In this document: piece after piece, positions 31,174 through 51,944 of the stretch | Position numbering within the stretch: position 1 is the stretch's first letter | How the letters are laid out: each line of letters starts with the position of its first letter | NCBI GenBank assembly: GCA_024277115.1 | Contig: JAJRVW010000008.1 | Span: forward strand, 1-52,914 | Length of the DNA stretch: 52,914 nt | Direction: 5' to 3' | Source of the DNA: Calditrichota bacterium | GTDB taxonomy: Bacteria; Calditrichota; Calditrichia; Calditrichales; J004 | Program-made: the position numbers and the translations under genes | Notes under the pieces: generated by a model | The model's database searches: none | Told to the model about the DNA's origin: nothing | Seen by the model: the letters and a program-made list of their open reading frames with translations, nothing else

Positions 31174-31613
31174 TATTGCTCTCCCTGTTCCATTTCAAAA
31201 AAATATTGTGATGATTTATTTTCCATACCATTTTTTGTGATGGTTTTTAAGTTAAAAACCGCCAGTTTCTTTTTATCATTTTGGGTTGTAATTACAATAT
31301 CGCCCATCAGTTCGTAGCCCTGCGTTGCCAGGACTTTTTTCTCATCTTTGTACAAATGGATTTTATATCTGCTCGTTGAATTGGCGACGATTAAATCCGC
31401 ACCTTCAGCTTTCACTTCCAATTTATCGGTGATATTCTTTGGATTGGGCACATATACCGTCACTATTTTTAAGGGTAGTTCCGATTTGATCTCTGCCGAA
31501 ACCACCGTTGCCGGTTGAATGGCGCGGTAGGTTGGCGAAATCCAGCCATCTCCGGCATGCTCTCCGCCTTTGGCCGCTGCAAGCTTGATCGGCGCGTCAT
31601 TGAAGGTAACCAT
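31173..31613 (-). CDS. C-terminal fragment of the heparinase II/III-like protein (frameshifted)
   Basis: These 146 codons continue the protein at 31622-33538 in another frame. The first ATG (31613) is internal. Upstream in the same frame one reads ...AIAAQGKNSTLDIH, joining onto the end of the upstream frame at an A5 run on the coding strand (31657-31661). GDGWISPTYRAIQPATVV is the usual late beta-sandwich stretch of heparinase II/III proteins ('GW.S..Y....P'). One extra base in the A run would give a single protein of about 788 aa. It is therefore unlikely to be an independent gene. Confidence 0.8.
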   Translation of the reverse strand: MVTFNDAPIKLAAAKGGEHAGDGWISPTYRAIQPATVVSAEIKSELPLKIVTVYVPNPKNITDKLEVKAEGADLIVANSTSRYKIHLYKDEKKVLATQGYELMGDIVITTQNDKKKLAVFNLKTITKNGMENKSSQYFFEMEQGEQ

Positions 31614-31621
31614 GTGAATGT

Positions 31622-33538
31622 CTAAAGTTGAGTTTTTCCCTTGTGCGGCAATCGCATTTTTGATTTGTTTAAAGTGACCTCAATATCGCTGTTAAAATGG
31701 AAGTGTGGTTTTATAGAATGTGTTTTATCCACAGAATCAGCTGAATAAATTTCATCAAAAACAATCCAGAATTTCTGATCAACAAAAGCAAAATGCCTGC
31801 GATGTATAGGTTTTCCCTCTTGGCGGGAATACCCATAATGTTCGGCACAGACCCCTTTTATCAAATGCCCGTCACGTTTTTGCAAAACCTTAAATTTTGG
31901 CGCATGGCTCCATACTAAAATCCCACCTTGCTTGGCCTGCGATTCGCCATTGATCTCGATCGTGTTATGAGCGGCCGTACTACGGAAATAACAATGCCAG
32001 TCAAAATCGCCGCGATAATTTGAAAAGCCCGGGTCCACCAGATACGAATCGCCAAAAGCCGCAAGTTCAATTGCCAAAAGATCGGCATGGCCATGTGCCG
32101 CCGAGGGTGTCTCGTCATAAAAAACCCCGTGGGCGATTGGGCCGCTATCCATGTGCGCATAATGGCTGGCATTTTCATATCCGGAGCGGAAGATTGAATA
32201 GCCGCATTCATCCATAAAAATCGTCTTGTCTTTTGGCGCTTCACTTTCCAGTTTTTCATATTTTTTTTGCCCGTCTCCGTCCAACATCCAAAAAGCTTCT
32301 TCCTGATATTTCTGTGATGTAAATTTCATGTCCGGCCGGTTAAACCAAATCGCGCCCATCGTTTGGCAGGAAAGGAAATTCCAGTTTGTCGGTTGGCGGA
32401 AATATATGGAGCGTGCATCGTCTATATCGCCCATATAGGGCAAGGTACCGTCCGGCTTGGTCATAACCATGGCAAATTCCAATGCCTTTTCCACACGATT
32501 GCAAACTTTTGGTGGCACGGATTCCCCATTTAAGTTTTTTAAGGCGATGGCCTGTAAATAAAAGCCCAAGGTAAAATGATGATAAAAAGTGGCCTGCTCC
32601 ACAGATGCGCCATCGGAATGAAATTGTTTTTCCACCTGATCGACCAATATGTCCCAGGCTTGTTTTTCCCATTTGGCCGCATCCTTAAATCCGGGAAACA
32701 AATATCCCACCATAAACAACCCGGCCGTTTCACCAATTAAATGATTGTAAGGGCTAAAATAAATTGAGAGGTTTTCCGACAGATATGCGCCACATAAATA
32801 TAAAAGCCGTATAATGGTTTTTACAACCTTGGCATCACGGTTTTTTCCCGCCATATAAAAATGCAAGGCCCAAACCAAAGCCGTTGCCCTCACGCCAACC
32901 TCCAAAGCGCTGGCCCAGGCAACACCACGTTTATAGGGATTTTTTTCATCCCAATCCAAAATCAGGTCATCAAATTTAGTTTTATATTTTTCATCTTCAG
33001 AAAGATAGTACGCCTTGGAAAGTTCGATCAAATATTGCAGGCGGTTAACTTCCCAAACGTGTTTTATATCCCCGGCATTTTTATTGGTAAAAATATTTAT
33101 ATTCCGGTAAAACCCTTCGGGATATTTATTGAGCGAAACCGGATCGGATTGCCAGGGAATGGGATCGGGCAGCGTAAATTTTACACCTAAAAAAGCAAAT
33201 TCGTTTTTTAAAAACGCATCTGCCCTTTTTAGCGACTCTTCATACTCTGCGGGAAACTCACTGTTAAAACGGTTGCGTTTCGCGTCATCCAGGGGGGAAG
33301 AAATTGTGCGTATAAAATCTTTTGAACTGAACAGGCCATCCAAATCGCCTTCCTGATATTTCTGAAAAAGATGTGTGGCATTCTTCCCAAAAAAATTAAA
33401 ATCCGGGTTTAGTACTTGTTTCAGTTCATTTTCTGCATTGGCCTTTTCACGGCGGATACGGATTTGCTCCATTACCCGAAAACGTAGCTCGGCAAATGAC
33501 ATGCGAAATATTTTTTTAAATTTTGATGCTAAGGCCAT
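31622..33538 (-). CDS. Heparinase II/III-family protein, main part (frameshifted near its C-terminus)
   Basis: This is a 638-aa frame with no signal peptide. The N-terminal MSFAELRFRVMEQIRIRREK and a toroid of helices (SLNKYPEGFYRNINIF, HLIGETAGLFMVGYLFP, GASVEQATFYHHFTLGFYL) are followed by the beta-sandwich lyase core ETPSAAHGHADLLAIELA and YRGDFDWHCYFRSTAAHNTIEING, which is typical of heparinase II/III proteins in exopolysaccharide loci. The frame ends at a TAG shortly after HFHFNSDIEVTLNKSK, where related proteins continue for about 150 residues; that missing part is at 31173-31613. Lacking a signal peptide, it may act inside the cell or use another export route. Confidence 0.83.
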   Translation of the reverse strand: MALASKFKKIFRMSFAELRFRVMEQIRIRREKANAENELKQVLNPDFNFFGKNATHLFQKYQEGDLDGLFSSKDFIRTISSPLDDAKRNRFNSEFPAEYEESLKRADAFLKNEFAFLGVKFTLPDPIPWQSDPVSLNKYPEGFYRNINIFTNKNAGDIKHVWEVNRLQYLIELSKAYYLSEDEKYKTKFDDLILDWDEKNPYKRGVAWASALEVGVRATALVWALHFYMAGKNRDAKVVKTIIRLLYLCGAYLSENLSIYFSPYNHLIGETAGLFMVGYLFPGFKDAAKWEKQAWDILVDQVEKQFHSDGASVEQATFYHHFTLGFYLQAIALKNLNGESVPPKVCNRVEKALEFAMVMTKPDGTLPYMGDIDDARSIYFRQPTNWNFLSCQTMGAIWFNRPDMKFTSQKYQEEAFWMLDGDGQKKYEKLESEAPKDKTIFMDECGYSIFRSGYENASHYAHMDSGPIAHGVFYDETPSAAHGHADLLAIELAAFGDSYLVDPGFSNYRGDFDWHCYFRSTAAHNTIEINGESQAKQGGILVWSHAPKFKVLQKRDGHLIKGVCAEHYGYSRQEGKPIHRRHFAFVDQKFWIVFDEIYSADSVDKTHSIKPHFHFNSDIEVTLNKSKMRLPHKGKTQL

Positions 33539-34669: not shown

Positions 34670-35044
34670 TTATAGGAGGATATAACTGCCGGAGACCATT
34701 GCTTTAAAAATCAGTAAATTCATTTTACTGGTTATGTTCATTCTGTTAAGGGCAAAAATATTTGAGCCCGGCTTATTATAACCTTTCAGCTGGGTTGTTG
34801 CGCAAGAATAGCCGAGTTCTTTTAACTGATTAAAGTGAACGGGCAAAAAATTGCCATTATCGCCGTTGGGATAACTAAACAAATTGCAGGGCTCGCCCAA
34901 ATTTGTTTCAATTTTCTGCTTGGAAATTGAAAGCTCGTTAAAAGAAGCCTGTTCATCCATCATATTTAAAAGTGTATGCGTATGGGTGTGGGAGCCAATT
35001 TCCATGCCTGCCCCACGCATTTCTTTTACTTCGCCCCAATTCAT
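34670..35044 (-). CDS. C-terminal part of an interrupted polysaccharide deacetylase
   Basis: This 124-codon stretch begins at an internal ATG and is in the same frame as 35057-35689, separated only by TAG and four codons (RYDF). It carries MEIGSHTHTHTLL, the metal-binding HxxxH motif of NodB deacetylases, and NLFSYPNGD, the later Tyr-Pro motif. Neither half contains the complete active site, so the intact gene would be 34670-35689 (339 residues). Confidence 0.82.
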   Translation of the reverse strand: MNWGEVKEMRGAGMEIGSHTHTHTLLNMMDEQASFNELSISKQKIETNLGEPCNLFSYPNGDNGNFLPVHFNQLKELGYSCATTQLKGYNKPGSNIFALNRMNITSKMNLLIFKAMVSGSYILL

Positions 35045-35056
35045 AAAATCATAACG

Positions 35057-35689
35057 CTAGGGGTCTTCGTTTATGGCCCAATCATCATAGCCGGTTATTT
35101 CGGAGAGTTCTGCCAGAACACGCTCCTCCACCTCTATGGGATGAAATTTTAAATAAGTCCTGACAAGTACCGAAGCCTTTTCCCTTTTTTCAACAGAAGA
35201 AAGGTCTAGCTCAACAGGCTCGTCCAGGTTAACTTTTAACTTATTTAGTTTTGTATTAAGTAAAATATCATTGACCTTTTCGGTCCAAAGCATATAATGT
35301 TTTCCGATAAAATCGGTCGCGATATAAAAAACGGCCGTGGCATCATTATCTAAAAGTACCGGTACGGCATAGTCGTGATTATTTTTAAAGCCATCATCAA
35401 AAGTTATGACGACATGGATATTATCGAGCCTGTCTGCCTTTAACCGCTCCGTCGCCTCATTTAAACTAATAATACTATAATGCTTTTTTAAGTATTTGAT
35501 TTGGGCGTCAAAATCCTCGGCGCTTACACAGTTGCGGTAATCAAACCCCTCAAATTTGGGCGAGTTTGGTAGAACCGAATGATAGGTGAGGATGAGTACC
35601 GACCCCTTGTTTTTTTGTTTATAAAGCTGGTTTAAGCCAGAAAGGTCGAGGGCGGAATATAAAATATTTTTTACAAAATTTTTAGGCAT
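35057..35689 (-). CDS. N-terminal part of a polysaccharide deacetylase interrupted by in-frame TAG
   Basis: This 210-aa frame has the NodB start LILTYHSVLP (27-42 region), motif 1 VVITFDDGFKNN (catalytic and metal aspartates) and FYIATDFIG. It ends ...WAINEDP at TAG 35057-35059. The same frame continues at once with RYDFMNWGEVKEM and the HTHTH motif, so a single GAG, CAG or AAG to TAG change is the simplest explanation. The start overlaps the flippase stop by 8 bases. As written, the product would lack the metal-binding histidines. Confidence 0.82.
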   Translation of the reverse strand: MPKNFVKNILYSALDLSGLNQLYKQKNKGSVLILTYHSVLPNSPKFEGFDYRNCVSAEDFDAQIKYLKKHYSIISLNEATERLKADRLDNIHVVITFDDGFKNNHDYAVPVLLDNDATAVFYIATDFIGKHYMLWTEKVNDILLNTKLNKLKVNLDEPVELDLSSVEKREKASVLVRTYLKFHPIEVEERVLAELSEITGYDDWAINEDP

Positions 35690-39839: not shown

Positions 39840-40646
39840 TCAGCATTTCGTTAACCTGTAAATTTTGAAGGACAACGGCAAATGCGCCAAACCAATAATA
39901 GACTTCAGAATAGACCCGATTATGCGTAAGCCCGGCAAAAAAAGTGCGATTATACCCATCTGGATTGCCATCGCATCTACATAATACGAATATCCGGGCG
40001 TCTCCGGCGATCGTTTACGAATGCGCCCAAGAATAAAAAACATGTGAAAAGTAAATCCAAAATATAGAAAAATACCAACAACGCCCCACTCAACTAAGAC
40101 TAGGAAGAAGGTACTATGAACGGTTTTTACACCTTTGTCTTGCATTACCTCAACAAGTTCGGGCACATAATCCATCACCAATTTTGTAAATGCCTTACCA
40201 CCGGCACCGGCAGGATGGTCTTTCCACATCTCGATAGCGCCGTTCCATAAGTAGATTCGGCTCATGGCCGACCCATCTTCTTCATAATTCTGGATCGTAC
40301 TTTGCCGTTCGATAAATTGATCATTGGCCAGCATAAAAACCATAAAAACACCGGCAACCAGTGCAAGAAGGACATACCAGCGCAAGCGGCCCTTAATCCA
40401 AATAAAGCTAAGTATCCCGATAACAAGTACAGCTAAAAATGACGCACGTGAGTTTGCTAAAATAATAAGGTTTAACAGGAGTGGCACAGAAAGAATGGTC
40501 ACAATTTTTTGCCATCGCTTTCCTGTTAATGCATATAATCCAAAGAAGGGCAAGATAGCCGCAACATGTGCCGAGATGGCATTTTCTTCGGTTGCATTGG
40601 GCGCAATTACCCCAAGGTAGCGGTTCCCGCCCCGTTGCCAGGCCAC
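39840..40646 (-). CDS. O-antigen ligase/polymerase, C-terminal part (frameshifted at both ends)
   Basis: This 268-codon frame has several membrane segments and the O-glycosylation-ligase-like stretch GGNRYLGVIAPNATEENAISAH, then RIYLWNGAIEMWKDHPAGAGG and the histidine loop VKTVHSTFFLVLVEWG typical of Wzy_C/WaaL proteins. The GTG start is internal; the N-terminal third is at 40607-41092. At the other end a second shift at an A7 run (39937-39943 on the plus strand) would convert the final residues to FAGLTHNRVYSEVYYWFGAFAVVLQ and an acidic tail ending at TAG 39778. The repaired gene (39778-41092) would encode about 438 aa. Confidence 0.82.
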   Translation of the reverse strand: MAWQRGGNRYLGVIAPNATEENAISAHVAAILPFFGLYALTGKRWQKIVTILSVPLLLNLIILANSRASFLAVLVIGILSFIWIKGRLRWYVLLALVAGVFMVFMLANDQFIERQSTIQNYEEDGSAMSRIYLWNGAIEMWKDHPAGAGGKAFTKLVMDYVPELVEVMQDKGVKTVHSTFFLVLVEWGVVGIFLYFGFTFHMFFILGRIRKRSPETPGYSYYVDAMAIQMGIIALFLPGLRIIGSILKSIIGLAHLPLSFKIYRLTKC

Positions 40647-41092
40647 CCGTCCAAATTTGCCACGGAAAATATTAAGGTCCAGATTATTTTTTTATGATGG
40701 TCCACCTCCCGGACCAGATACATCATTAAAAAAATCTGGATGGTCATTTTTAAAAAATTCTCTGAGCGCTTGAAGCTGTCTTTAGGGCTAATGGCAAAAA
40801 AGACGCTTACAAAATACATATACGCCGTCATGGCCACCAGCCACCAAATTAAGCTATAATTAGCTTCCTTAAGCTGCTTCAACTTTCCATGGTTTATTAT
40901 TAAGCTCCACAATGTTATCAGAGAAACTAACATGGACCAGCGGAAATCGGGTAATGGATCGCCCCACCACATATAAGGCGGATGATTGTGCCATTCAAAA
41001 ATATAGAGGGCAACTCCCCAAAAGGGATTTTTTAATGTGAGGTAAACGCCTGTAAGAAAAAGCAGAATAAAAAGGACAGCGGTTGCAGACAT
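40607..41092 (-). CDS. O-antigen ligase/polymerase, N-terminal part (frameshifted)
   Basis: This 161-codon frame has four to five membrane segments (FILLFLTGVYLTL, WGVALYIFEWHNHPP, SLITLWSLII, FLMMYLVREVDHHKK), typical of putative O-glycosylation ligases of exosortase-A-type loci. The last dozen residues (DGWPGNGAGTATLG) are unrelated to the family, and the proper continuation RVAWQRGGNRYLG lies in the next frame at 40646. The missing base is most likely in AAATTT at 40653-40658; a T7 run at 40687-40693 is a second candidate. The protein should polymerise repeat units or transfer them to an acceptor. It begins two bases after the LarA-like gene. Confidence 0.82.
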   Translation of the reverse strand: MSATAVLFILLFLTGVYLTLKNPFWGVALYIFEWHNHPPYMWWGDPLPDFRWSMLVSLITLWSLIINHGKLKQLKEANYSLIWWLVAMTAYMYFVSVFFAISPKDSFKRSENFLKMTIQIFLMMYLVREVDHHKKIIWTLIFSVANLDGWPGNGAGTATLG

Positions 41093-41094
41093 AT

Positions 41095-42303
41095 TTATCC
41101 TGTTAATTGCATGCTGCCATAAGGGAAAATGGCAACTTTGGGGTTTGCAGGAACAAAAGAATTAAGGTGTTCAATTAAATTGTCCCAATTATTAAAAAAA
41201 TTATAGTCTTCATTAAAAACAGTTTGAAAATCTTCCCGGGAAACATTTTCTGAGAAGAGAACAAAGTTATACTCTTTCAAAAAACGGATCGGGCGCGGTT
41301 TCCGATATAACCTACCACCCGGGCCAAACAATCCATGATGGCCAAGCCCTTCGGAACATGCCGTTAATAAAATGTAAGTCCCACCCGGTTTTAAAAGTTT
41401 TTCTTTTGATGATTTTATCGGAATAAAACCATTTTCTGCCTGTAAAAGCTCCGTATCTTTTGGATAGGCGGATGAGATGACTACGTCATAAAGTTGATTG
41501 TTTGTATTTGTTAAACAATATGCGCGGGCTTCTTCTGCGGCTTCACGATGCGCATCCACATAGTGGCCGCAATAAATATTACGGATGCTTCGGTTGGCAT
41601 TTATCACGACACCGATAAAAAAATCTATCCCGGCCTTCTGAACAAACTCTTCTATCGTTGCCCTAAACTTATTATTTTCCATACTGCCAAGCTTGCCCAT
41701 AAAACCCATCAATACAGATTTATGCGTTTTGGCCAGTGTTTCCATATCAGCCAAACCGGGAAACAACATCTTAGCCCCACCGCTAAATCCGGCAAAACTA
41801 TGGGCAGTTAAACCACTAATCACTATTTTATAATCCGACTCCACATAATGGCGATTAAGCTTTACCTCTGTTTTCCCCCAAATAACATCAATCGGCACAA
41901 CATCTTCTGTATCGTGATTGATACAATTAACGTTTTCAACAATAAACTTGCCCAGCTTTTTTTGCATATTTTCTATGCTCAGGCCATGATGTGAGCCAAG
42001 GCCGATCAGGACTTTGATTTTGTCGTTGGCCACACCTGCATTATTAAGCCGGGAAATAATGAGGGGCAATAATCCATGCAGTTCAACCGGGCGTGTCAGG
42101 TCGTCCACTACAATTACAGCAGATTTTGGCTTTTTTTCCGATAGAGAATCAGGCAAGGCGTTTAGCTTTTGGGCTAAGTCTGAATCTGAGATGGCCATTT
42201 CACTATCCAGGTTATAGGCATCTATCTCCCAGCCATCGGGGATTGAAAAAGATTTCATGGAGTCGCCATACCAGGCGCCCCAGGGAAGTGTAATCTCGGC
42301 CAT
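41095..42303 (-). CDS. LarA-like (lactate racemase family, DUF2088) protein
   Basis: This 402-aa protein keeps the LarA active-site pattern: VDDLTRP with D68 and R71, GLGSHHGLS with H105/H106, TAHSFAGFSGGAKMLFPG with H168 and K178, and H194. The H168-K178-H194 spacing (10 and 16) equals that of H174, K184 and H200 in Lactobacillus plantarum LarA, where the lysine binds the nickel-pincer nucleotide. LarA-family enzymes racemise or epimerise 2-hydroxy acids. No cofactor genes (larB, larC, larE) are in the window. It starts three bases after the acyl carrier protein stop, so the two are probably co-translated. A hydroxy-acid decoration of the polymer is a guess. Confidence 0.82.
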   Translation of the reverse strand: MAEITLPWGAWYGDSMKSFSIPDGWEIDAYNLDSEMAISDSDLAQKLNALPDSLSEKKPKSAVIVVDDLTRPVELHGLLPLIISRLNNAGVANDKIKVLIGLGSHHGLSIENMQKKLGKFIVENVNCINHDTEDVVPIDVIWGKTEVKLNRHYVESDYKIVISGLTAHSFAGFSGGAKMLFPGLADMETLAKTHKSVLMGFMGKLGSMENNKFRATIEEFVQKAGIDFFIGVVINANRSIRNIYCGHYVDAHREAAEEARAYCLTNTNNQLYDVVISSAYPKDTELLQAENGFIPIKSSKEKLLKPGGTYILLTACSEGLGHHGLFGPGGRLYRKPRPIRFLKEYNFVLFSENVSREDFQTVFNEDYNFFNNWDNLIEHLNSFVPANPKVAIFPYGSMQLTG

Positions 42304-42305
42304 TA

Positions 42306-42539
42306 TTATTTCTTGGAACCTATAAATTCTACTATCGCGTTGATGGAATCGAAATTTTCCGGCAACATATCATCCTCGTCAATGTCAATTCCAAATTCTT
42401 TCTGGATATAATCGATCAACTCAAGCATCTTAAAAGAGTCAATTATTCCAAGCTCCAATAGTGAGTCATCATTATCTAAATCTTCAAATTCTTCTTTCAA
42501 ACTGTCATCATACAGAAACTTTAAAATCTGATCTTTCAT
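42306..42539 (-). CDS. Acyl carrier protein
   Basis: This 77-aa acidic protein has the four-helix ACP pattern. Ser35 in LLELGIIDSFKMLELIDYI is the phosphopantetheine site, with the usual Asp before it, and helix III follows after FGIDIDEDDMLPENFDS. It differs from housekeeping ACPs (GADSLD) and resembles the stand-alone carriers of exosortase-A-type loci. The AMP-forming ligase at 47968 could load it. The GNAT gene upstream and the LarA-like gene downstream are in line with it, suggesting acyl transfer to the glycan. Confidence 0.87.
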   Translation of the reverse strand: MKDQILKFLYDDSLKEEFEDLDNDDSLLELGIIDSFKMLELIDYIQKEFGIDIDEDDMLPENFDSINAIVEFIGSKK

Positions 42540-42594: not shown

Positions 42595-43662
42595 TTATGC
42601 ATCCCTGTCGCCTACGGTCATAAACCATTTTTTCCCATCCATTACTGCTGCTGCCAAATCCGGATTTTTCTCCTCATTGGAATAAGCAATTACCCCGGAC
42701 GTCGCATCCGGCCGAAATTTAAAACCCAGCTTCTTCAGATCAGGGATGAACGGGTTAAACTCTTCAATTATAAATGAGAGGGAAACAATTGACCTTTTAA
42801 AATTTTTACGCACATTATTTATAAACATACGGAACAGTTGAGACGAAAAGCGATCAAAATCATCAACCAATACATCAATGATATGCACGACATCATCTTT
42901 ACGGACGAAGAAAATGGTCCCAACCAAATGATTTTTATAAAACATATCAAATTGCTGATATTTACGGTTTGGGTTGGAGCCAAATTTCCATTGTAGATAT
43001 TTACTGCTCCTGTCTGCGACAACCGGGAAGGCTTCGGTCATTTTTCGATAAAGTTCATCATGGCCTTTGTGAACCTGCACATCGTCGTAAATTTTGCCAG
43101 ATAACCCTAAAAATGTATTAAACCGGTACTTGAAAGAGAGCAACAGGTTGGCGGGTTTGGCAAGAAAAAAAGAAAGCTTTGTACTTTTGACAATCGCTTT
43201 TACCTGGCGGGTCACCCGAATTGGCAAAGCATAGCGGTGCATCTGTGCTATTTTTTTGTGCCCGACTTTTAAATGAATAATTTCCATACGCTCATTAGGG
43301 TGTGCATACAAAAATGGCGGGTTATTATCATCGATACATTCTTTTGCAGCCCGTCGTAGTTTTAATGCCACGCCCAATGCCCGGTATTTTTTTTCAATGG
43401 AAAAATCTCCACAATTCCACCCAATGTATTGCTTGCCCTCAACAAATACAGGCCGGGGAAAAACACCTGTAAAGCCAACCGGGATATTTTTTTTGTCGTC
43501 CCAAATAATCCATGCTTTGGCCTTTCCAAACGGATTATTCAGATAAATCCATTCGAACCTTTTATCATAATCAAATCCGGCAACTGACCGGTTGTTGGTA
43601 AGTATGCCTACCATAATTTGGCGGTCTTTTACCAAATCCGCTTCTTTTACTATATAGCCCAT
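42595..43662 (-). CDS. GNAT-family N-acyltransferase-like protein
   Basis: This 355-aa protein has the GNAT fold in its N-terminal half: KNIPVGFTGVFPRPVFVEGK and a CGDFSIEKKYRALGVALKLRRAA acetyl-CoA-loop-like stretch (about 85-107), followed by FLYAHPNERM. The C-terminal half may be a second GNAT-like domain (HLVGTIFFVRKDDVVHIIDVLVDD). Such two-domain proteins in polysaccharide loci are assumed to acylate amino sugars. The gene lies 55 bases upstream of the acyl carrier protein gene, which might provide the acyl donor. The acceptor is unknown. Confidence 0.72.
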   Translation of the reverse strand: MGYIVKEADLVKDRQIMVGILTNNRSVAGFDYDKRFEWIYLNNPFGKAKAWIIWDDKKNIPVGFTGVFPRPVFVEGKQYIGWNCGDFSIEKKYRALGVALKLRRAAKECIDDNNPPFLYAHPNERMEIIHLKVGHKKIAQMHRYALPIRVTRQVKAIVKSTKLSFFLAKPANLLLSFKYRFNTFLGLSGKIYDDVQVHKGHDELYRKMTEAFPVVADRSSKYLQWKFGSNPNRKYQQFDMFYKNHLVGTIFFVRKDDVVHIIDVLVDDFDRFSSQLFRMFINNVRKNFKRSIVSLSFIIEEFNPFIPDLKKLGFKFRPDATSGVIAYSNEEKNPDLAAAVMDGKKWFMTVGDRDA

Positions 43663-43694: not shown

Positions 43695-44849
43695 TTACTG
43701 ATCTCTGATTGTCTGCCATGTAGTATATTTTTTTCCAAGGAAATTATCTAAAATGCCTAAAATTGAGGCAATATTTACCTGGACAAAATAATAAGGGATG
43801 GAGATAAAAAATGGCGCGAACTTTGTCCGGTCAATTACCAGCCAGCCGATAATACTTAAAAAATACATAACACCCTGACCAAAAATGAAGGCATCATAAA
43901 TAAAATTGTGGCCCAAAAGAAAAAAATTGGTCACAAGAAATGCCAATAAAAATATCCCGCCAAGCCAACGCAATAATTTATGAGAAAATACCTGCCAGGC
44001 ATGAAGACCAGTTTTGAACGGGTTTAATACAGCAATATTTTTAAAGAGCCCCCGCCAACTCCGGTTCACAATCCGTCGCTTCCGGCCAATTTCCTTGTCA
44101 AACGTGTCAGCGCCATGTTCATAACAAATTGCATCGGGATTAAATACACCGCGATACCCCTGCAGAATAATCTGTAAAGGATTTACAAAATCATTAATAT
44201 CATCCGCTTGCAGCGGTTTATAAAGCTCTTTGCGGATGGCATAAATAGCGCCATCACCACCAACAACCGATCCGATTTTTGACTCCGATATTTTAAGGCG
44301 TATCTCCATGGACCAGTATGAATCTTCCTGCTTGCCAGCTTTGCTTTGCCCCTCTTTAATATATTGGGCGTTGCCGACAACATAGCCAATTTTTGGGTCC
44401 TTAAAATATTTTACAAGTTCTTTTATGGCACTGGGTTCATAAATGGCATTCGCATCGGAAAAAACAACAATCTCACTTTTTATTTCCGGCATAATCTTAT
44501 TTACGCCAAAAGTTTTGCCTAATCGTTCTGTCATACGTTTCAGGCGGATAGCAGGATGGCCAAAATTTTCAACAATGGTATCTGTCTTATCATCCGATGC
44601 ATCGGAGACAACAATAATTGAAAACCGGTCTTCAGGATAATCTATCTCCAAAGCATTTTGCAGCTTCGATTTTATCACCGATTCCTCATTATAAGCCGAA
44701 ATAACCATCGTAACCGATGGTAGGTAATCCGTATCTACCAATGCGGGTTTTTTGATGATTTGCGCTAAGATTGTGCTTACAAGCGGATAGCCGATATAGA
44801 TGTAAATAAGCAGGGCCAGCAAGCCCCAAAATAGGATTTCTAAATACAC
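43695..44849 (-). CDS. Membrane GT2 glycosyltransferase
   Basis: This 384-aa protein has an N-terminal membrane segment (5-30) and a GT-A domain starting VTMVISAYNEESVI, with VVSDASDDKTD and the DxD-type VVFSDANAIYE. Next come GGDGAIYAIRKEL and the RRIVNRSWRG loop that stands where processive synthases have QxxRW. The C-terminus has about four more hydrophobic segments. It could start or elongate the chain on the inner membrane. The match to strictly processive enzymes is only partial. Confidence 0.85.
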   Translation of the reverse strand: MYLEILFWGLLALLIYIYIGYPLVSTILAQIIKKPALVDTDYLPSVTMVISAYNEESVIKSKLQNALEIDYPEDRFSIIVVSDASDDKTDTIVENFGHPAIRLKRMTERLGKTFGVNKIMPEIKSEIVVFSDANAIYEPSAIKELVKYFKDPKIGYVVGNAQYIKEGQSKAGKQEDSYWSMEIRLKISESKIGSVVGGDGAIYAIRKELYKPLQADDINDFVNPLQIILQGYRGVFNPDAICYEHGADTFDKEIGRKRRIVNRSWRGLFKNIAVLNPFKTGLHAWQVFSHKLLRWLGGIFLLAFLVTNFFLLGHNFIYDAFIFGQGVMYFLSIIGWLVIDRTKFAPFFISIPYYFVQVNIASILGILDNFLGKKYTTWQTIRDQ

Positions 44850-44904: not shown

Positions 44905-45723
44905 TTACAAGACAATGCTTTGAGAAAAATTATCTTTTATTTTACCGATTTTATAATAAAGTTTTCTTGTCTTTTCATGCACTTGCCTGGGAAATCTTTT
45001 TAAACTCGTTGTACCGAACACCCGTTTATTATTAGCTTTTAGGTCGGCAACATTTTCATCGGATAAATCAAAAACCTGAAAACTTACCTCGCCCGCCACG
45101 TCATCATACATAATAAAACTTAATGGCAGGCCATGCCGGGGTTCACCGCAAGTTCCGGGATTGATCAAATACAATTCATCCTCTTTTATTATAAGTGTTT
45201 TCCCGATCGGAAATGTGGTAACACTCTCTTTTATTAGATTGTACACATAACTGCCAGGACGGTGCGTATGTCCAAAAAAGGCAATTTTTTTACCTCTTTG
45301 TCTGAGTATATCAAAATTCTTTTTTGCTTTATCGATGGTATTAACTGTTTCATAAACGGAGTTGAACCCCGCATGGATTCCAATAGAATTTTGTGTTATT
45401 TGTAATTCGTCGGGCATCTTTTTTAAGAAGGCGCGGTTCTCTTCACTCAATATTTTCTTTGTCACGCCAATGGCATTCTGGCTTCGTTCGCTCCTGCATG
45501 TACTCAGCGATAGTTCATCCAAAACCAAACACTCGTGGTTACCTTTAATCGAATCAATATTATTATTTTTTATAAACTCGACACACTCATTGGGATAACT
45601 GTTATAGCCCACAATGTCACCCAGACAATACATTTTATCAATGCCATTTTCCTTAAAGAAAGCCAAAATATTTTTAATGCCATATTTATTGGCGTGGAGA
45701 TCGGCAAAGATTAAATACTTCAA
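44905..45723 (-). CDS. YfcE/MJ0936-like metallophosphoesterase
   Basis: This 272-aa calcineurin-like phosphoesterase has the ordered metal motifs DLHAN (D8, H10), GDIVGYNSYPNEC, GNHE and GHTHRPG, with a histidine in IGIHAGF between them. The family hydrolyses phosphodiesters or phosphomonoesters using two metal ions. It has no signal peptide and so should be cytoplasmic. A TTG start overlaps the ATP-grasp stop (TTGA), indicating coupling. The substrate might be a lipid- or sugar-phosphate, but this is only inferred from location. Confidence 0.83.
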   Translation of the reverse strand: MKYLIFADLHANKYGIKNILAFFKENGIDKMYCLGDIVGYNSYPNECVEFIKNNNIDSIKGNHECLVLDELSLSTCRSERSQNAIGVTKKILSEENRAFLKKMPDELQITQNSIGIHAGFNSVYETVNTIDKAKKNFDILRQRGKKIAFFGHTHRPGSYVYNLIKESVTTFPIGKTLIIKEDELYLINPGTCGEPRHGLPLSFIMYDDVAGEVSFQVFDLSDENVADLKANNKRVFGTTSLKRFPRQVHEKTRKLYYKIGKIKDNFSQSIVL

Positions 45724-46913
45724 CTGAGGATTCTCCGTACACGGCGTATAACCCCTTTTGATGTTTCTTTTAACCCGTAAAGTACAGGCATAATATCATC
45801 TGAGGCGTATGTCTGGTAAATTTTTTTGCCCCTCAAAGACTTAATCCAGCCCCAGGAAGAAATTAAATTTTTCCCTTTAATTTCCCGATAAACCTGGAAA
45901 TCCTGAAATGCGCTCAACCACTTAATGTCTGTTCTGTATTCTGTAGGATATGGCCCTGTTTTATTGCCCAGATGATAATCATAAGCAATTGCCGGAAGAT
46001 TGATCCCTGCCTTTGCCCCAAGGTAATGCCACATATTGTATCGCGGATTAATCTCCAATAAATAAATCTTGCCCGTCTGTTCATCTAGTTTGTAATCGAT
46101 TTTTATTGGCCCGCGAAAGTTTAATTTCTTGAGCATATCAACGCTTGTTTTAACAACATTATCGTCTTTAATCAATCCAAGATAGCAACTTAAGCCATAA
46201 TCATACGGGTAGGTACGCACCTTACGACCACAATATGAAGTGAGGGGTTCTGAATTTTCATCAAAAAAACTATGATAGCTTAGGATATTGGATTCCGGGC
46301 CCGGAATATATTTCTGGACGATATAATCAATATCTTCCTGATCTATTTTTTCTCGATAATAGATAAACTCATCTAAATTATTTATAAGCAATACTTTTTG
46401 CTGAGAACCGATTTCTTTAATGACCTGCGAATTAAACCAATGGATGCGGCTTGTTGGTTTAATGATAATGGGGTAATCCAGCTCAGAGCCATCTTTAATA
46501 TCGCTTTTATGCTTTGTAGGCGGAATGGGCAAATCATACTTTTCAACAATCTTATGAAATATATTTTTATCGAGGCTGGAATCGACCACTTCCTGAGTAG
46601 GTAAAAGGACTTTAAATTTTTTACTTATCAGCTCATAATTCTCGGCAATCAATTTCAATTGGGCATCATTTGTATAATAAAGAGGTAACCCTTCACCAAA
46701 TTCATCTACTATTTTCAACAAGCCTTCCAAAGTTTTTTCCGGTGCTTTTGAAGGATTTGGTAAAGAAAGTCCTTTTATACATGTCTTTGAATAAAATAAC
46801 CGTTTATCATTTTTTGTTGTAATACCAATATATGGGATTCCGGCAAGTGAGAAGCATCTTCCCATCATTAAATTGCCAAGTACTACGGCCGGTTTTTTTG
46901 CCATTTTTGCCAT
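45720..46913 (-). CDS. ATP-grasp family ligase
   Basis: This 397-aa protein has an N-terminal nucleotide-fold domain (AVVLGNLMMGRCFSLAGIPYIGIT) and an ATP-grasp domain starting near KIVEKYDLPIPPT. YPIIIKPTSRIHWF carries the ATP-binding lysine, and FRGPIKIDYKLDEQTGKIYLLEINPRYNMWH has the metal-binding E and N. Proteins of this form in exopolysaccharide loci join a carboxylate to an amine, for example an amino acid on a sugar. Between it and the FemAB-like gene are only 20 bases. The actual substrates are unknown. Confidence 0.82.
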   Translation of the reverse strand: MAKMAKKPAVVLGNLMMGRCFSLAGIPYIGITTKNDKRLFYSKTCIKGLSLPNPSKAPEKTLEGLLKIVDEFGEGLPLYYTNDAQLKLIAENYELISKKFKVLLPTQEVVDSSLDKNIFHKIVEKYDLPIPPTKHKSDIKDGSELDYPIIIKPTSRIHWFNSQVIKEIGSQQKVLLINNLDEFIYYREKIDQEDIDYIVQKYIPGPESNILSYHSFFDENSEPLTSYCGRKVRTYPYDYGLSCYLGLIKDDNVVKTSVDMLKKLNFRGPIKIDYKLDEQTGKIYLLEINPRYNMWHYLGAKAGINLPAIAYDYHLGNKTGPYPTEYRTDIKWLSAFQDFQVYREIKGKNLISSWGWIKSLRGKKIYQTYASDDIMPVLYGLKETSKGVIRRVRRILS

Positions 46914-46933: not shown

Positions 46934-47962
46934 TTAAGGTAAATTCTTTACTACTTGTGGCCCGATTATTTTGGTCATGAACAGTGGCATTTTTTGCCAG
47001 GCTGCAATGGCTAATTTGTATTTGGGGTTATTTGGGTTAATCTCAGGAAGTTTTTGGCCTTCCGGCAATAAATAGAACCAGTATAATTGCTGTTCTGTGG
47101 CGCCCCATTGTTTTTTAAATTTATATGTACCGCTATCTTTAGAGCATCGGCCAAAATCAAACTGTTTATAACCTTTTTCAATTGAAAATTTTAAAATTTC
47201 CCAGTACAAAAGCATGTTTGGGCTCAAACGGTTGTACTCCCTAAGGGTGGAAGCCCAGGGGATTTCCATTCGCTTTTTTGACCCGATTAAGAACGCACAG
47301 CCCACGGCCTTATGCTCTTTTGTATAGACGATAACAATGTTACTGTTATCCGGGGATTCTTCTAAAATTGTTTTAAAAAAGCTTTTACTATAAACCGGTG
47401 TGCCTAAATCGCGCATATTGCGGCAAAAGATGGCATAATAAGCATCCAGTAATTCCAGGCCGCCAATTTTGGAATACATCTCTTCTTTTAATGGCCTACG
47501 GATTTGGCTTCTTAGTTTTGATTTAAATCCGGCAAAAAGTTCTTCGTCCGTTTCAGGCAGGTCAAGAAAGAAAGTCACTTTTTGTGTTTTTAATGTGAGC
47601 CCTTCATGCTGATTGGTTAAATTACGCAGCTCCACAAAGTCAGCGCCTGTTTCTATTCGGATTTTTTCGGCTTCCGCTAACAAAAGTTTTTCGGACTCTG
47701 CATCCGAGTAGAGCATGCCGCCATAATTTACATAAGGCACCGAGATGATGAATGTCCCGAACAGCCTGGATTTAAAAAGTATAAGCGGTAACACGCCGGT
47801 AATTTTTTGATCATTAAGCGTATAAATATAAAAAGTCTTTTTACCAAAATGGTTTTCAATGATTCGTTTCCATTCTGATTTTTGATAAATAGAGCCTTGT
47901 TCGTGCTGTTCTACATAATCATCCCACAACTCTGTCTGATCCGTTAAATAATGAACCTGCAT
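46934..47962 (-). CDS. FemAB-related transferase of the exosortase/PEP-CTERM-associated type
   Basis: This 342-aa double-GNAT protein resembles the FemAB-related family of exosortase loci. The C-terminal signature is FDFGRCSKDSGTYKFKKQWG, then LYWFYLLPEG, NPNNPKYKLAIAAWQKMP and ending in KIIGPQVVKNL, as in that family. FemAB proteins transfer an aminoacyl or acyl group onto an amine. It is flanked by the ATP-grasp and AMP-forming ligase genes, five bases after the latter. It probably adds an acyl or amino-acid group to a sugar of the repeat unit. Confidence 0.82.
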   Translation of the reverse strand: MQVHYLTDQTELWDDYVEQHEQGSIYQKSEWKRIIENHFGKKTFYIYTLNDQKITGVLPLILFKSRLFGTFIISVPYVNYGGMLYSDAESEKLLLAEAEKIRIETGADFVELRNLTNQHEGLTLKTQKVTFFLDLPETDEELFAGFKSKLRSQIRRPLKEEMYSKIGGLELLDAYYAIFCRNMRDLGTPVYSKSFFKTILEESPDNSNIVIVYTKEHKAVGCAFLIGSKKRMEIPWASTLREYNRLSPNMLLYWEILKFSIEKGYKQFDFGRCSKDSGTYKFKKQWGATEQQLYWFYLLPEGQKLPEINPNNPKYKLAIAAWQKMPLFMTKIIGPQVVKNLP

Positions 47963-47967
47963 ACTTT

Positions 47968-49506
47968 TTACTTTATCCCTTTTAATTCTTTTAGTTTATT
48001 TTTCATTATTTTTCCAGAGCTGTTTTTGGGCAAACTTTCCATGCGGGTAAATTTTGAAGGTACTTTAAAAGAGGGAAGTTTAGATTTTGTATGCTTTAAT
48101 AATTTCTCACGCCAACCTTCTTGCTCATTTTTAAGGACCACGCAGGCATCCATTATTTCGCCTAAAATTTTATCAGGTAAACCAATAATTGCCACTTCAA
48201 TAACATTTTCATTCTCGATTATCACTTCTTCAATTTCCTTGGCGCTAATCCTGTTTGCACCAACCTTTATCATATCTTTTGACCGGCCAACAATAAATAA
48301 AAATCCATCTTTGTCCGTAGTGCCAATATCGCCGGTAAAGTAAAGCCCGTTTTTTAAAACACTATTTGTCTCATTTTTATCTTTCCAATATCCTTGCATA
48401 ATATTAGCGCCACGGGCCACAATCTCACCTTTTTCACCTTGTGGCAGCGGATTGCCTTGGGCGTCGGCAACAAACAAATCTACATTTGGGATTGGTTTGC
48501 CGATTGAACCGTATTTTTGCGATAAAAATTGAGGATCGAGGTAGGAAAGCCGGGCAGATGCTTCGGTAGCGCCATACATAATAAAGAGTCTGGCCGGACT
48601 AAAAACATCCTCAACTTCTTTTTGCATACTCGGAGCCATGGCGCCACCCGCTTGGGTTAAATATCTTAGCTTTTCGAATTTGCGTGATTTTAAATTGGAT
48701 TTATTTAATAAAATCGCGAAAGTTGAAGGAACCCCGGCCAAACCGGTTACCTCTGTTTCCTCCATTGTGTTTAGTACGGCATTGGGAAAAGCAAAGCGGT
48801 TATCGATAACCAAACTACCGCCAATAGCAATATGCGTATTTAGAAGGGACATGCCATAAATATAATAAAAGGGTAATATCACCATCATCCGGTCTTGCGT
48901 TGTAAGCTCGAGATAGGTGATAATAGAGTCTGTATTTGTGGCAATATTTAAATGGGAAAGGGTTACGCCTTTCGGTACGCCTGTACTCCCAGAAGTATAC
49001 ACAATGGCGGCCAAATCAAGGTCTATCAACCTGACATTTGGCCTGCTGGAAGAATTGTTTTTTAAAACTGAGTTTAATTCTTCTACATTCTCAGGGTCTT
49101 CAAATCCTTTAGGGATTGAGATGAACACGAGTTTCAAAAGATTAGACAGCTGCCCTAAATTTGGAATCAAATGCTTTTTAAAGGACTTGTCTGTAAATAA
49201 AACACGGCTATCCGAGTTTGCCAATAAATAACTAAGCGAAGATGCGGTGGTTTCTGTATTTAGGCCGACAGTCACACATCCCGCTTTTAGAATACCATAA
49301 TAAATCGCCACATAATAAAAAGAATTCTCTAAAAGGAGGGCAACACGATCGCTTTTTTTTATACCTGATCGTATTAAAAAATTGGCAATTCTATTTGCTG
49401 TTTCTTCCAGTTCTTGATAGTTGTGCCAATTGTCTTTAAACCAAACTGCCGGTTGCTGCGGGGCTTTATCAAAGCTGGATTCTAAAAATGTATGTACTAG
49501 TTTCAT
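47968..49506 (-). CDS. AMP-forming acyl-CoA/acyl-ACP ligase (exosortase-locus type)
   Basis: This 512-aa ANL-superfamily enzyme has the P-loop YTSGSTGVPKGVTLSH (about 170-185), MYGATEASARLSYL, LYFTGDIGTTDKDGF and the C-terminal catalytic lysine in LPKNSSGKIMKNKLKEL. It activates a carboxylic acid as an adenylate and passes it to CoA or a carrier. With the small acyl carrier protein at 42306 and two acyltransferase-like genes, it probably feeds a glycan acylation step. A terminator separates it from the Wzc-type kinase gene upstream, so it may have its own promoter. Confidence 0.88.
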   Translation of the reverse strand: MKLVHTFLESSFDKAPQQPAVWFKDNWHNYQELEETANRIANFLIRSGIKKSDRVALLLENSFYYVAIYYGILKAGCVTVGLNTETTASSLSYLLANSDSRVLFTDKSFKKHLIPNLGQLSNLLKLVFISIPKGFEDPENVEELNSVLKNNSSSRPNVRLIDLDLAAIVYTSGSTGVPKGVTLSHLNIATNTDSIITYLELTTQDRMMVILPFYYIYGMSLLNTHIAIGGSLVIDNRFAFPNAVLNTMEETEVTGLAGVPSTFAILLNKSNLKSRKFEKLRYLTQAGGAMAPSMQKEVEDVFSPARLFIMYGATEASARLSYLDPQFLSQKYGSIGKPIPNVDLFVADAQGNPLPQGEKGEIVARGANIMQGYWKDKNETNSVLKNGLYFTGDIGTTDKDGFLFIVGRSKDMIKVGANRISAKEIEEVIIENENVIEVAIIGLPDKILGEIMDACVVLKNEQEGWREKLLKHTKSKLPSFKVPSKFTRMESLPKNSSGKIMKNKLKELKGIK

Positions 49507-49584: not shown

Positions 49585-50412
49585 TTAATAATTATAATAT
49601 GAATACTTGTAATTTTCTTTTTTAATATCTAACTCAGCACAATTTAAAACCATGCCAAAAAGCTGGTTTTGAAAATCTTCATATTCACTTATTTTTTCTT
49701 TGGCCTCTTCCACATTTGTTTTACCTGCACGAACGATAAACAATCCATGGTCAACATATTGCGAGATTACAACCGAATCTGCTGTGACCATTATCGGTGG
49801 CGTATCGATTATAACAAAGCCAAAACGTTCTGTTAAAAATTTGATTACATCCTTGCCTCGCTGAGAGCCCAAAATTTCTGAAGGGTTCGGCACAGGCATA
49901 CCACTGCTAAGTAAATATAAATTTGGGATATGCGTTTGCTGAATCACTTTACGAATATTTTCATCGTTTATATCCGCGTTACTATATAGAAAATCTGAAA
50001 GTCCCGGTTTTTTATTACATGCAAATGAGTTATGCAAAACACCGCGTCTCAAATCCGCGTCAACGATTAAAGTAGGGATTTTTTGCTGGGCAAAAGTTAT
50101 GGCCAAATTACCTGCATTTAACGATTTTCCCTCTCCAGGATTTAAAGATGTAATAAAAATAGAGCGGCTCTTCTTTTGTTCTGTACTAAACAAAAGCTGG
50201 GTACGCAAACTTCTATAAGCCTCGCCCATAGGTGTTGGCGAATAATCCGCCGTAACTAACTTGGGATCGATTCGTTTTGAATTATCAAAATTATCGGTTT
50301 CTATATTTTTCTCTGAGCCAACGACAGGTATTTTTGCCACAACCCTGATAGGAAGTACCTTCTCAAGTTCATCCGAGGTACGCACAGTTTTATCCATAAA
50401 ATCCGAAAGCAA
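49585..50412 (-). CDS. BY-kinase domain of a Wzc-type protein (split by frameshift)
   Basis: This 275-codon frame holds the whole bacterial tyrosine kinase domain: the SLNPGEGKSLNAGNLA Walker A, LIVDADLRRG Walker A', VIIDTPPI Walker B and a C-terminal tyrosine cluster, YKYSYYNY, for autophosphorylation. The start is an internal TTG; the domain normally follows a second membrane segment in one polypeptide. The preceding frame ends with that segment, and the correct link LLSDFMDKTVRTSDELEKV appears only in this frame. One extra base at the GGG (50418-50420 on the plus strand) would fuse both into about 786 aa. A separate kinase, as in Gram-positive CapAB systems, is possible but the 112-base overlap argues against it. 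Confidence 0.85.
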   Translation of the reverse strand: MLSDFMDKTVRTSDELEKVLPIRVVAKIPVVGSEKNIETDNFDNSKRIDPKLVTADYSPTPMGEAYRSLRTQLLFSTEQKKSRSIFITSLNPGEGKSLNAGNLAITFAQQKIPTLIVDADLRRGVLHNSFACNKKPGLSDFLYSNADINDENIRKVIQQTHIPNLYLLSSGMPVPNPSEILGSQRGKDVIKFLTERFGFVIIDTPPIMVTADSVVISQYVDHGLFIVRAGKTNVEEAKEKISEYEDFQNQLFGMVLNCAELDIKKENYKYSYYNY

Positions 50413-51944
50413 AACGACCCAACACTAACACCTAATCCTACAATAAACGCAATCATTAGATATTTCATATAATAGGCCATTTTCCCACCTGCTGAAGGTA
50501 GAACAGCCCGATCAAGAATTATGATATCACCAACTTCTACCGCATCCGAAATTTTAGCTTGATTATGCCGAACCAGAAGAGAGGAATAAATATTATCGGC
50601 CACATTTCTTTTGCGTTGTAAGTTTACGTATTCTAATTCTTTTGCAGGTAATTTACGAAGCTGTCTATTTTCCTGGCTAATTTGATTTGCCGATCTTTGA
50701 ATAGACTCATTAAAACTGTTTAATTGGTTTTGGGCCGTTAAAATAATATCTTTCGTAATTTTATCCATCTGCCGCTGGTTTTCTATAATAATGGGGTGCG
50801 ATGGCGCATAAGACCCGGAGAGAGTAAGACGCTCTGTATTATACTTAGTAAAATCTGCCGATAGCGCAGGAGCTGTGGCCGCGCCCTGTGTCCCAAGAAA
50901 AGACAATACTTTATTTAAAACACTGTATTTGTCATCAGCCGTAGCCGCATTAAACTGCGCCAACAGTCTTTCCAGTTCGCTTTTTTTAGATTCAACAGCC
51001 CGTTTCTGACTCTCGATCATGGTTACACCGGTAACAGCGCCTGCAGCATCTGCGGCAAGGCCAACGGTTGGGTTTCTTTGCCGAAAGTTTTTCAATTCTT
51101 CACTTGCTAAGTCCAGGTCTTCCTTTGCTTCCCTTAACTGTTCTGTTAAAATCTCCAGGACTTCTCTGGTATGAAATTTTTTAAAATTAATATTTTGGGT
51201 GACAAATTCATCAATCACCGTATTAAGGGTTTCCTTAACAAGATGTCTGTCCGGCCCGGATATTTTTATTTCTAAAAGTGTTCTGTCCCGATTTTTAAAT
51301 CCAGGTTGCAAGGATGCCCGTAAAGCCAGGACGGCCCGCTCTTTACGGACTAAATCAAATTCAAGTTTTTTATTGGAATCAAAAAAAGTGGGTTTAATCG
51401 CTACTTTAAAACCACCATATTGCAGAATATTATTTTTTAATGACGTATCCTCTAAAACAACCTTGTCTTCAACAGACTTATCCGGGCTGGTATAAAATAG
51501 TTTATAACCGGAATCTGTTTTTTCAAGTCTGTATCTTCCTTCAATATATTCATCATCCACTGCAACAGAATCGATCGCAGAAAAACGGTTTACGCCACGG
51601 ACATAAAATTCCAGGGATAATTTTTCGATAACATTTTTTAGGAATGTACGGCTCATCATCATTCCTAATTTACTGTCGTTTTGCGCCCTGCCCCGTCCAC
51701 CACGTGTTTCTGTCCCGGCAAGCCTGCTGCGGTCATCAAACTGCAAAAGGGCGTCTGTAGAATACATTCTCTTTGGGCCAAACTTTACGGCAGCGATTAA
51801 AGTAATTATAAATACAAGGATAAATGTTCCAATGATGGTCCACTTTTTCCTTTTAAAAAGTCGAACATATTTTTTAAAATCAAAGCCTCCCGATCCAGAA
51901 GCACCAAGATTGTTTTTCTTTGAACCTGTTTCTTTATTTTGCAT
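50301..51944 (-). CDS. Wzz/Wzc-type polysaccharide co-polymerase, periplasmic part (frameshifted)
   Basis: This 547-codon frame has a cytoplasmic tail, a membrane segment (about 35-57) and a Wzz domain. A long coiled-coil region (about 240-440, HTREVLEILTEQLREAKEDLDL...) leads to the GNVR-type stretch YVNLQRKRNVADNIYSSLL, then ILDRAVLPSAGGK before the second membrane segment (YLMIAFIVGLGVSVG). After that the frame turns into unrelated sequence (CFRILWIKLCVPRM...), while the true continuation is the kinase frame. Co-polymerases control chain length and connect to the outer-membrane exporter encoded directly upstream. Confidence 0.86.
   Translation of the reverse strand: MQNKETGSKKNNLGASGSGGFDFKKYVRLFKRKKWTIIGTFILVFIITLIAAVKFGPKRMYSTDALLQFDDRSRLAGTETRGGRGRAQNDSKLGMMMSRTFLKNVIEKLSLEFYVRGVNRFSAIDSVAVDDEYIEGRYRLEKTDSGYKLFYTSPDKSVEDKVVLEDTSLKNNILQYGGFKVAIKPTFFDSNKKLEFDLVRKERAVLALRASLQPGFKNRDRTLLEIKISGPDRHLVKETLNTVIDEFVTQNINFKKFHTREVLEILTEQLREAKEDLDLASEELKNFRQRNPTVGLAADAAGAVTGVTMIESQKRAVESKKSELERLLAQFNAATADDKYSVLNKVLSFLGTQGAATAPALSADFTKYNTERLTLSGSYAPSHPIIIENQRQMDKITKDIILTAQNQLNSFNESIQRSANQISQENRQLRKLPAKELEYVNLQRKRNVADNIYSSLLVRHNQAKISDAVEVGDIIILDRAVLPSAGGKMAYYMKYLMIAFIVGLGVSVGSFCFRILWIKLCVPRMNLRRYFLSGLWQKYLSLAQRKI

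What the first reader, a model, noticed from the sequence alone, without database searches (positions are those of the whole stretch)
41095..42539. LarA-like enzyme paired with an acyl carrier protein in a glycan locus
The LarA-like protein keeps the D-R-H-H-K-H pattern with the exact 10/16 spacing of LarA, including the lysine that binds the nickel-pincer nucleotide. It sits three bases downstream of a stand-alone ACP. A 2-hydroxyacyl group tethered to ACP and used to decorate the glycan is an attractive, untested idea.
Basis: partly seen in the sequence, partly recalled or inferred. Interest (0 to 1): 0.55.

Follow-up and report, generated by a model that had tools for sequence, protein, structure and literature searches.

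The report
LarA-like enzyme linked to carrier protein
In polysaccharide gene clusters of Calditrichota bacteria, a distinct branch of a nickel-cofactor racemase family is kept together with a small acyl carrier protein, which hints at unusual chemistry on a carrier-bound acid, although the substrate is unproven and some of these genomes lack the known cofactor-making genes.

Summary
The LarA-like protein (41095-42303, minus) keeps D68, R71, H105, H168, K178 and H194 with LarA's 10/16 spacing, models as a whole LarA fold (Z 41.3 to I. pallida LarA) and starts two bases after an ACP with an intact serine site. The pair recurs: an ACP lies upstream on the same strand in 17 of 18 named subfamily loci (the 18th is cut by a contig end) and in 0 of 62 other LarA relatives. 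The subfamily is one clade (local support 0.996). It lacks LarA's Lys298 (0 of 18; 59 of 62 others have it) and about 18 residues around the Trp358 lid. A tandem-GNAT acyltransferase, and often an acyl ligase, sit beside it. Best model: the ligase loads an acid on the ACP, the LarA-like enzyme works on it, the GNAT transfers it to the glycan. Against: larB, larC and larE are in this genome, but nine of 16 phylum genomes with the pair lack larC and larE, including all six of one family and one complete genome. Other LarA homologs in this phylum show the same gap (larC in 7 of 16 genomes), whereas relatives in other phyla mostly have larC (42 of 46). A new variant of a known kind.

The parts
41095..42303 (-). 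LarA-like protein, 402 aa; D68, R71, H105, H168, K178, H194 kept; Asn291 at the Lys298 position; short C-terminal segment
42306..42539 (-). free-standing acyl carrier protein, 77 aa, attachment motif IIDS with Ser35 (invariant in the 17 aligned ACPs)
42595..43662 (-). tandem-GNAT acyltransferase-like protein, 355 aa (no Pfam match at E 0.001; model resembles N-myristoyltransferases and Eis-type double GNATs); beside an ACP in 16 of 20 GNAT loci searched
47968..49506 (-). AMP-binding acyl ligase, candidate loader of the ACP; best-scoring NCBIfam model PRK06187 (long-chain-fatty-acid--CoA ligase), then TIGR03098 (exosortase A-associated), both below cut-off
46934..47962 (-). FemAB-type protein, TIGR03019 (XrtA/PEP-CTERM-associated) over cut-off
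45720..46913 (-). ATP-grasp protein of the locus
44905..45723 (-). calcineurin-like phosphoesterase of the locus
43695..44849 (-). family 2 glycosyltransferase
39840..41092 (-). polymerase-like (Wzy-type, named from context and hydrophobic look, not from a profile hit) gene, split into two overlapping frames here

Best explanation
The LarA-like protein belongs to a Calditrichota-centred clade that works as part of an acyl-decoration module in exopolysaccharide loci. Proposed steps: (1) the AMP-binding ligase activates a small acid, probably a 2-hydroxy acid, and loads it on the dedicated ACP; (2) the LarA-like protein, carrying the nickel-pincer nucleotide (NPN) on Lys178/His194, inverts or otherwise works on C2 of the acyl group while it is on the ACP (a thioester has no carboxylate, which fits the loss of Lys298, and a shorter lid fits a bulky carrier-bound substrate); (3) the tandem-GNAT protein moves the acyl group to an amine of the sugar or another acceptor. 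Shown: the fold, the retained residues, the recurring ACP-LarA-GNAT linkage, the lost Lys298 and shortened segment. Inferred: the substrate, the thioester, the use of NPN and the order of steps. The number given is for step 2 as stated, on an ACP-bound substrate with NPN; that the module as a whole decorates the glycan with an acyl group I hold at about 0.65.
For: ACP upstream on the same strand in 16 of 16 fetched loci from other phylum genomes and in 17 of 18 named loci (a broader PP-binding model gives the same), 0 of 62 other LarA relatives. The two sets overlap: together with the window they are 21 loci in 20 genomes, ACP in 20. GNAT protein in 14 of 16 and 14 of 18 loci; ligase in 9 of 18. 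Six cofactor and catalytic residues invariant, Lys298 position N or T in 18 of 18 readable rows against K in 59 of 62; segment 70-71 aa in 18 against 84-90 aa in 60 of 62, and the DQW motif at a fixed offset in 53 of 62 but in no subfamily row at that offset. Clade support 0.996. LarA fold; double-GNAT fold. Precedent for a 2-hydroxy acid activated for an O-antigen: V. [quoted passage not shown]
Against: larC and larE missing in nine of 16 pair-bearing phylum genomes and larB over cut-off in ten; no association of larC with the pair inside the phylum (7 of 16 against 7 of 24, Fisher p 0.50). The ligase is missing near all six family-f2 loci, four of which have about 7 kb or more on each side, so loading is unexplained there. 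In five of those six, one or more genes separate ACP and LarA. The double-GNAT family usually uses CoA thioesters (established knowledge), and no ACP docking was tested. No coordinates were at hand to measure the pocket.
Confidence: 0.35

Rival explanations
1. The LarA-like protein is an ordinary NPN racemase of a free 2-hydroxy acid, and its product is then activated by the ligase and put on the ACP.
For: All characterised LarA homologs in the papers read act on free 2-hydroxy acids. Residues for NPN and both histidine bases are kept.
Against: Lys298, said to be catalytic, is N or T in 18 of 18 rows, and the Trp358 segment is missing. The protein scores 220 bits or less against cut-offs of 460-740 for all six NPN racemase models hit. 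The ligase is absent from f2 loci while the ACP stays.
Confidence: 0.2
2. The protein no longer uses NPN: the LarA fold serves another cofactor or a structural or ACP-binding role in the pathway.
For: Nine of 16 pair-bearing phylum genomes lack larC and larE, including complete genome G001 and all six f2 genomes, with the six residues still kept in all six f2 proteins. Relatives in other phyla have larC in 42 of 46 genomes tested.
Against: The gap is not special to this subfamily: the 16 phylum genomes with a Lar_N protein that is not ACP-linked also have larC in only 7 of 16. Strict retention of the NPN lysine and histidines argues for a cofactor of this type. f1 genomes G016-G018 have larB, larC and larE and only this one Lar_N protein.
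Confidence: 0.2
3. NPN is used, but in genomes without larB/C/E it comes from an unknown or very diverged route, or from neighbours; chemistry as in the best explanation or in the first rival.
For: Two kinds of LarA homolog persist in phylum genomes without larB/C/E.
Against: No candidate genes found; uptake of such a nucleotide is not described in the papers read. Incomplete genomes explain some rows (G010 72%, G019 85%) but not G001.
Confidence: 0.15
4. The protein does hydride chemistry other than inversion, for instance a dehydration or redox step on the acyl-ACP.
For: Desguin and others suggest that LarA homologs lacking H174 or K298 may do another hydride reaction (PMC7583248, section read).
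Against: Both histidine bases needed for inversion are kept in all 19 rows.
Confidence: 0.08
5. The adjacency is an accident of one locus.
For: None found.
Against: 20 of 21 subfamily loci have the ACP, the 21st cannot be read; 0 of 62 other relatives.
Confidence: 0.01

Closest known systems
LarA superfamily, lactate racemase and Mar2 malate racemase (LarAH5/6)
   Same: Fold, D-R-H-H-K-H residues and spacing; closest solved chains Mar2 by sequence (27-28% identity) and I. pallida LarA by structure (Z 41.3, rmsd 2.7, 381 aligned)
   Different: Lys298 position is Asn/Thr, Tyr294 position Leu/Val, about 18 residues with Trp358 missing, below the cut-offs of all six NPN models hit, tied to an ACP
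LarA-like enzymes with a single catalytic histidine (LarA Sp, LarA Bw)
   Same: A LarA branch with changed substrate site and unknown substrate (PMC12611868, sections read)
   Different: Those lost the second His (Asn); here both histidines stay. Those lie near sugar metabolism genes, not an ACP
V. cholerae O1 RfbL/RfbK route to 3-deoxy-L-glycero-tetronate
   Same: Polysaccharide locus with a ligase and a carrier protein for a 2-hydroxy acid (PMC12208996, passages)
   Different: No LarA homolog is named in the passages seen; RfbL/RfbK roles are described there as putative
Exosortase A/PEP-CTERM-associated polysaccharide loci
   Same: FemAB matches TIGR03019 over cut-off; the ligase is near TIGR03098 but below cut-off
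   Different: An exosortase was not searched for in this genome
Nickel-dependent hexonate epimerase NF052594 (second LarA homolog of this genome, contig C62)
   Same: LarA superfamily, H-10-K-16-H spacing
   Different: Over the NF052594 cut-off, no ACP seen in its 3.4 kb locus; the ACP-linked protein scores 39.1 against a cut-off of 500

Membership tests
LarA superfamily (Lar_N / DUF2088) | Lar_N profile over cut-off and two-domain LarA fold | tested here: met
   135.3 bits against 23.3; model pLDDT 91.3, Z 41.3 to 9eia
LarA superfamily (Lar_N / DUF2088) | NPN-binding R75, K184, H200 | tested here: met
   R71, K178, H194, invariant in 19 rows
LarA-type 2-hydroxyacid racemases | Catalytic D72, H108, H174 | tested here: met
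   D68, H105, H168
LarA-type 2-hydroxyacid racemases | Catalytic Lys298 | tested here: not met
   Asn291; N in 15 and T in 3 of 18 readable rows
LarA-type 2-hydroxyacid racemases | Substrate-recognition segment with Trp358 or its equivalent | tested here: not met
   Segment 70-71 aa against 84-90 in 60 of 62; DQW at its usual offset in no subfamily row
Named NPN racemase/epimerase families of NCBIfam | Score over the curated cut-off | tested here: not met
   Best 220.4 bits against 500 (NF052593)
NPN-dependent enzymes | larB, larC, larE in the same genome | tested here: inconclusive
   Met in this genome; larC and larE in only 7 of 16 pair-bearing phylum genomes
NPN-dependent enzymes | Bound NPN | not testable with these tools
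   Needs protein
Acyl carrier proteins | PP-binding profile and attachment serine | tested here: met
   38.1 bits against 20.8; DS invariant in 17 aligned ACPs
GNAT acyltransferases (neighbour 42595-43662) | GNAT fold | tested here: met
   Z 22.6 to N-myristoyltransferase, 22.1 to 2hv2 (rmsd 5.2 and 3.3); no Pfam hit for the window protein at 0.001
Exosortase A-associated loci | Exosortase gene | not tested
   No search made for it

The most novel reading that the evidence does not exclude
A LarA-superfamily branch that has moved from free 2-hydroxy acids to an acyl group held on a dedicated carrier protein, the first such pincer-cofactor (or post-pincer) enzyme, and that in one Calditrichota family works without the known larB/C/E route, so that either NPN has a second biosynthetic source or this fold has another cofactor.
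Probability: 0.3. Interest if true: 0.8.

Novelty: new variant of a known kind. Interest (0 to 1): 0.55.

Why it matters
About half the LarA superfamily has no known substrate (PMC11770544 predicts function for half, abstract and sections seen). A branch with a fixed ACP partner and a telling change of the substrate site gives a direct handle: the carrier says where to look for the substrate. If the enzyme acts on acyl-ACP it would widen nickel-pincer chemistry to carrier-bound thioesters and to polysaccharide decoration. The genomes that keep LarA homologs without larB/C/E are a separate, testable puzzle about where the cofactor comes from; the literature seen reports the reverse case, larB/C/E without LarA, in about 15% of genomes (PMC11796402, passage).

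Tried and rejected
Rejected: accidental adjacency. Rejected: filing the protein as lactate or malate racemase, since it is far below the NCBIfam cut-offs and lacks Lys298 and the Trp358 segment.

Weakened: the idea that missing larB/C/E is special to the ACP-linked branch. Compared with other phyla it looks so (larC 10 of 20 pair-bearing genomes, being 7 of 16 and 3 of 4, against 42 of 46; Fisher p 4e-4), but inside the phylum LarA homologs that are not ACP-linked do no better (7 of 16 genomes). For one search I gave the first 46 of the 62 other relatives (50-locus limit); their completeness is not told.

Tree: the four f2 rows do not form a clade in the LarA tree; the f1 rows nest among them, so a single loss of larB/C/E with simple descent is not shown. 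L059 (truncated) was left out of the tree. L042 and L059 are truncated and give no Lys298 reading.

Led nowhere: paper searches for DUF2088 with acyl carrier protein (0 papers), exosortase with ACP, ligase and exopolysaccharide (0), LarA with exopolysaccharide and nickel-pincer (0), tetronate with perosamine, ACP and O-antigen (0); lactate racemase with ACP and gene cluster gave two papers whose titles look unrelated and which I did not open; a Caldithrix search gave nothing useful in its listing. I therefore found no report of an ACP-LarA pair in these searches only. In the second-look fold comparison, no chain outside LarA homologs scored Z over 5.4 for the LarA-like model.

Faulty steps: a first general PP-binding model was built with seven minus-strand segments read on the wrong strand and is discarded; one search repeats it correctly. 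A first regular expression for the Lys298 motif missed most general sequences; one search replaces it. Alignment A1 was made without the last window codon, so its numbering is one lower than the protein's.

Full report
What is there. On the minus strand the window holds a 402-aa LarA-like protein (41095-42303) whose ATG follows the stop of a 77-aa ACP (42306-42539) after two bases. Lar_N and PP-binding profiles are well over their cut-offs. An AlphaFold2 model from 27 sequences has mean pLDDT 91.3 and pTM 0.90 and matches LarA structures best: 9eia Z 41.3, rmsd 2.7, 381 residues aligned. The window is one whole contig, C89, of a 4.97 Mb genome in 255 contigs, 95.6% complete; named relatives are Calditrichota.

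The pair recurs. A protein search of 40 genomes of the phylum found relatives in 16 genomes, 17 loci. In the 16 loci outside this genome an ACP of the same family was found in 16, on the same strand upstream. An independent scan of genome contigs gave 80 loci (of 239 confirmed, capped); 18 are subfamily members at 32-63% identity to the window protein (33-62% by the search's own alignment) and 62 are lower-scoring, partial relatives. The ACP is upstream in 17 of the 18, the 18th having only 126 bases before the gene, and in none of the 62. In 13 of the 17 the ACP ends within 160 bases of the LarA match, in four it lies 1.3-2.3 kb away. A broader PP-binding model, trained also on 15 carrier segments of this genome, gives the same 17 of 18 and 0 of 62, and finds 15 of its 15 training segments; flanks of the 62 run from under 100 bases to 10 kb, so a distant ACP could be missed in a few.

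What sets the branch apart. In an alignment of the window protein, 18 subfamily and 62 other sequences, the NPN and acid-base residues are invariant in the 19 subfamily rows, but the Lys298 position is N (15) or T (3) in the 18 readable rows, against K in 59 of 62. Lys298 is listed as catalytic in PMC7583248 (Results read), which also notes groups of unknown function lacking it. The stretch between Gly319 and Val389 is 70-71 residues in 18 rows against 84-90 in 60 of 62; the DQW motif, which I take as the Trp358 site from the alignment, is at one fixed offset in 53 of 62 and in no subfamily row there; three subfamily rows have DQW elsewhere. The branch is a clade with local support 0.996 and a long stem (0.50). 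It is below the cut-off of each of six NPN models hit.

Neighbours. The gene before the ACP codes a 355-aa protein without a Pfam hit, whose model (pLDDT 91.7) is a double GNAT like N-myristoyltransferases (Z 22.6, rmsd 5.2) and 2hv2 (Z 22.1, rmsd 3.3). It is in 14 of 16 fetched loci and 14 of 18 named loci. A phylum search found 20 loci of it in 19 genomes; 16 have the ACP beside them, four do not, two of these in G028, which has ACP-LarA loci on other contigs. An AMP-binding ligase is in 9 of 18 named loci, plus the window and L028; the four non-f2 loci without it are cut short, whereas none of the six f2 loci has it, four of them with about 7 kb or more on both sides. Around these are glycosyltransferases, flippase-like, polymerase-like and FemAB genes, that is an exopolysaccharide locus.

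Cofactor genes. In this genome larC is on C51, larE and larB are neighbours on C243, all over cut-off. A second Lar_N protein on C62 scores 661.5 against 500 for the hexonate-epimerase model. Across the phylum, larC is in 14 of 40 genomes: 7 of 16 with the pair, 7 of 24 without (p 0.50). larE (searched with E up to 1e-15) is in the same 7 of 16 and in 6 of 24; larB over cut-off in 6 of 16 (not G028) and 6 of 24. The nine pair-bearing genomes without larC and larE are G001, G002, G004, G006, G009, G010 (all six of family f2 with the pair), G019, G024 and G029; completeness 72-100%, G001 being one contig at 100%. All six f2 proteins keep the six residues. Four further subfamily genomes: larC in 3 of 4. 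Hosts of other LarA relatives: 42 of 46. But Lar_N proteins of this phylum that are not ACP-linked (16 rows of 33, in 16 genomes) also have larC in only 7 of 16 genomes. So the gap is a feature of part of this phylum, not of the ACP-linked branch alone. Among the 11 genomes with a ligase near the pair larC is in 8; in the four f2 genomes with long flanks and no ligase it is in none (p 0.026; few and related genomes). In the tree f1 rows nest among f2 rows, so I make no claim on the number of losses.

Mechanism. I favour a module in which the ligase and ACP hold a small acid, the LarA-like protein works on it there, and the double GNAT hands it on. The lost carboxylate-binding lysine and the missing lid are what one would expect if the substrate is a thioester on a carrier, but a different free acid would also explain them. 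V. cholerae RfbL with the carrier RfbK offers a putative precedent for a carrier-bound 2-hydroxy acid in O-antigen synthesis (PMC12208996, passages). The retained NPN residues in genomes without larB/C/E are unexplained; a second cofactor source, another cofactor, or loss of NPN use are open.

Novelty. In papers seen, LarA homologs act on free 2-hydroxy acids, and searches for ACP with DUF2088, LarA with exopolysaccharide, and related terms found no report of this pair. I rate it a new variant of a known kind.

Noticed in passing
39840-41092, 34670-35689, 31173-33538, 49585-51944: Polymerase-like, polysaccharide deacetylase, heparinase-like and Wzz/kinase genes are each split into two same-strand frames here; three of them are single frames in same-genus locus L028, where the heparinase-like one is cut by the locus end. 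Sequencing error or gene decay; not decided.
   Followed up: no
L010:760-2169 (contig C62): Second LarA homolog, over the NF052594 hexonate-epimerase cut-off, beside a 6-phosphogluconate dehydrogenase-like gene (named from sequence look, no profile run).
   Followed up: partly
genomes G025 and G026: larB, larC and larE present but no Lar_N match at E 0.001; fits the known cases of larB/C/E without LarA.
   Followed up: no
genomes G002, G004, G007, G008, G015, G022, G023, G035, G037: Lar_N proteins that are not ACP-linked in genomes without a larC match.
   Followed up: partly
contigs C25, C147, C252 of this genome: Many carrier domains in very long open frames (24 PP-binding matches in all), which looks like NRPS/PKS clusters.
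   Followed up: no
G028:C414 and G028:C43: Two double-GNAT genes next to a flippase-like gene without the ACP, in a genome with two ACP-LarA loci elsewhere.
   Followed up: no
46934-47962: FemAB protein over the TIGR03019 cut-off (exosortase A/PEP-CTERM-associated); exosortase not searched.
   Followed up: no
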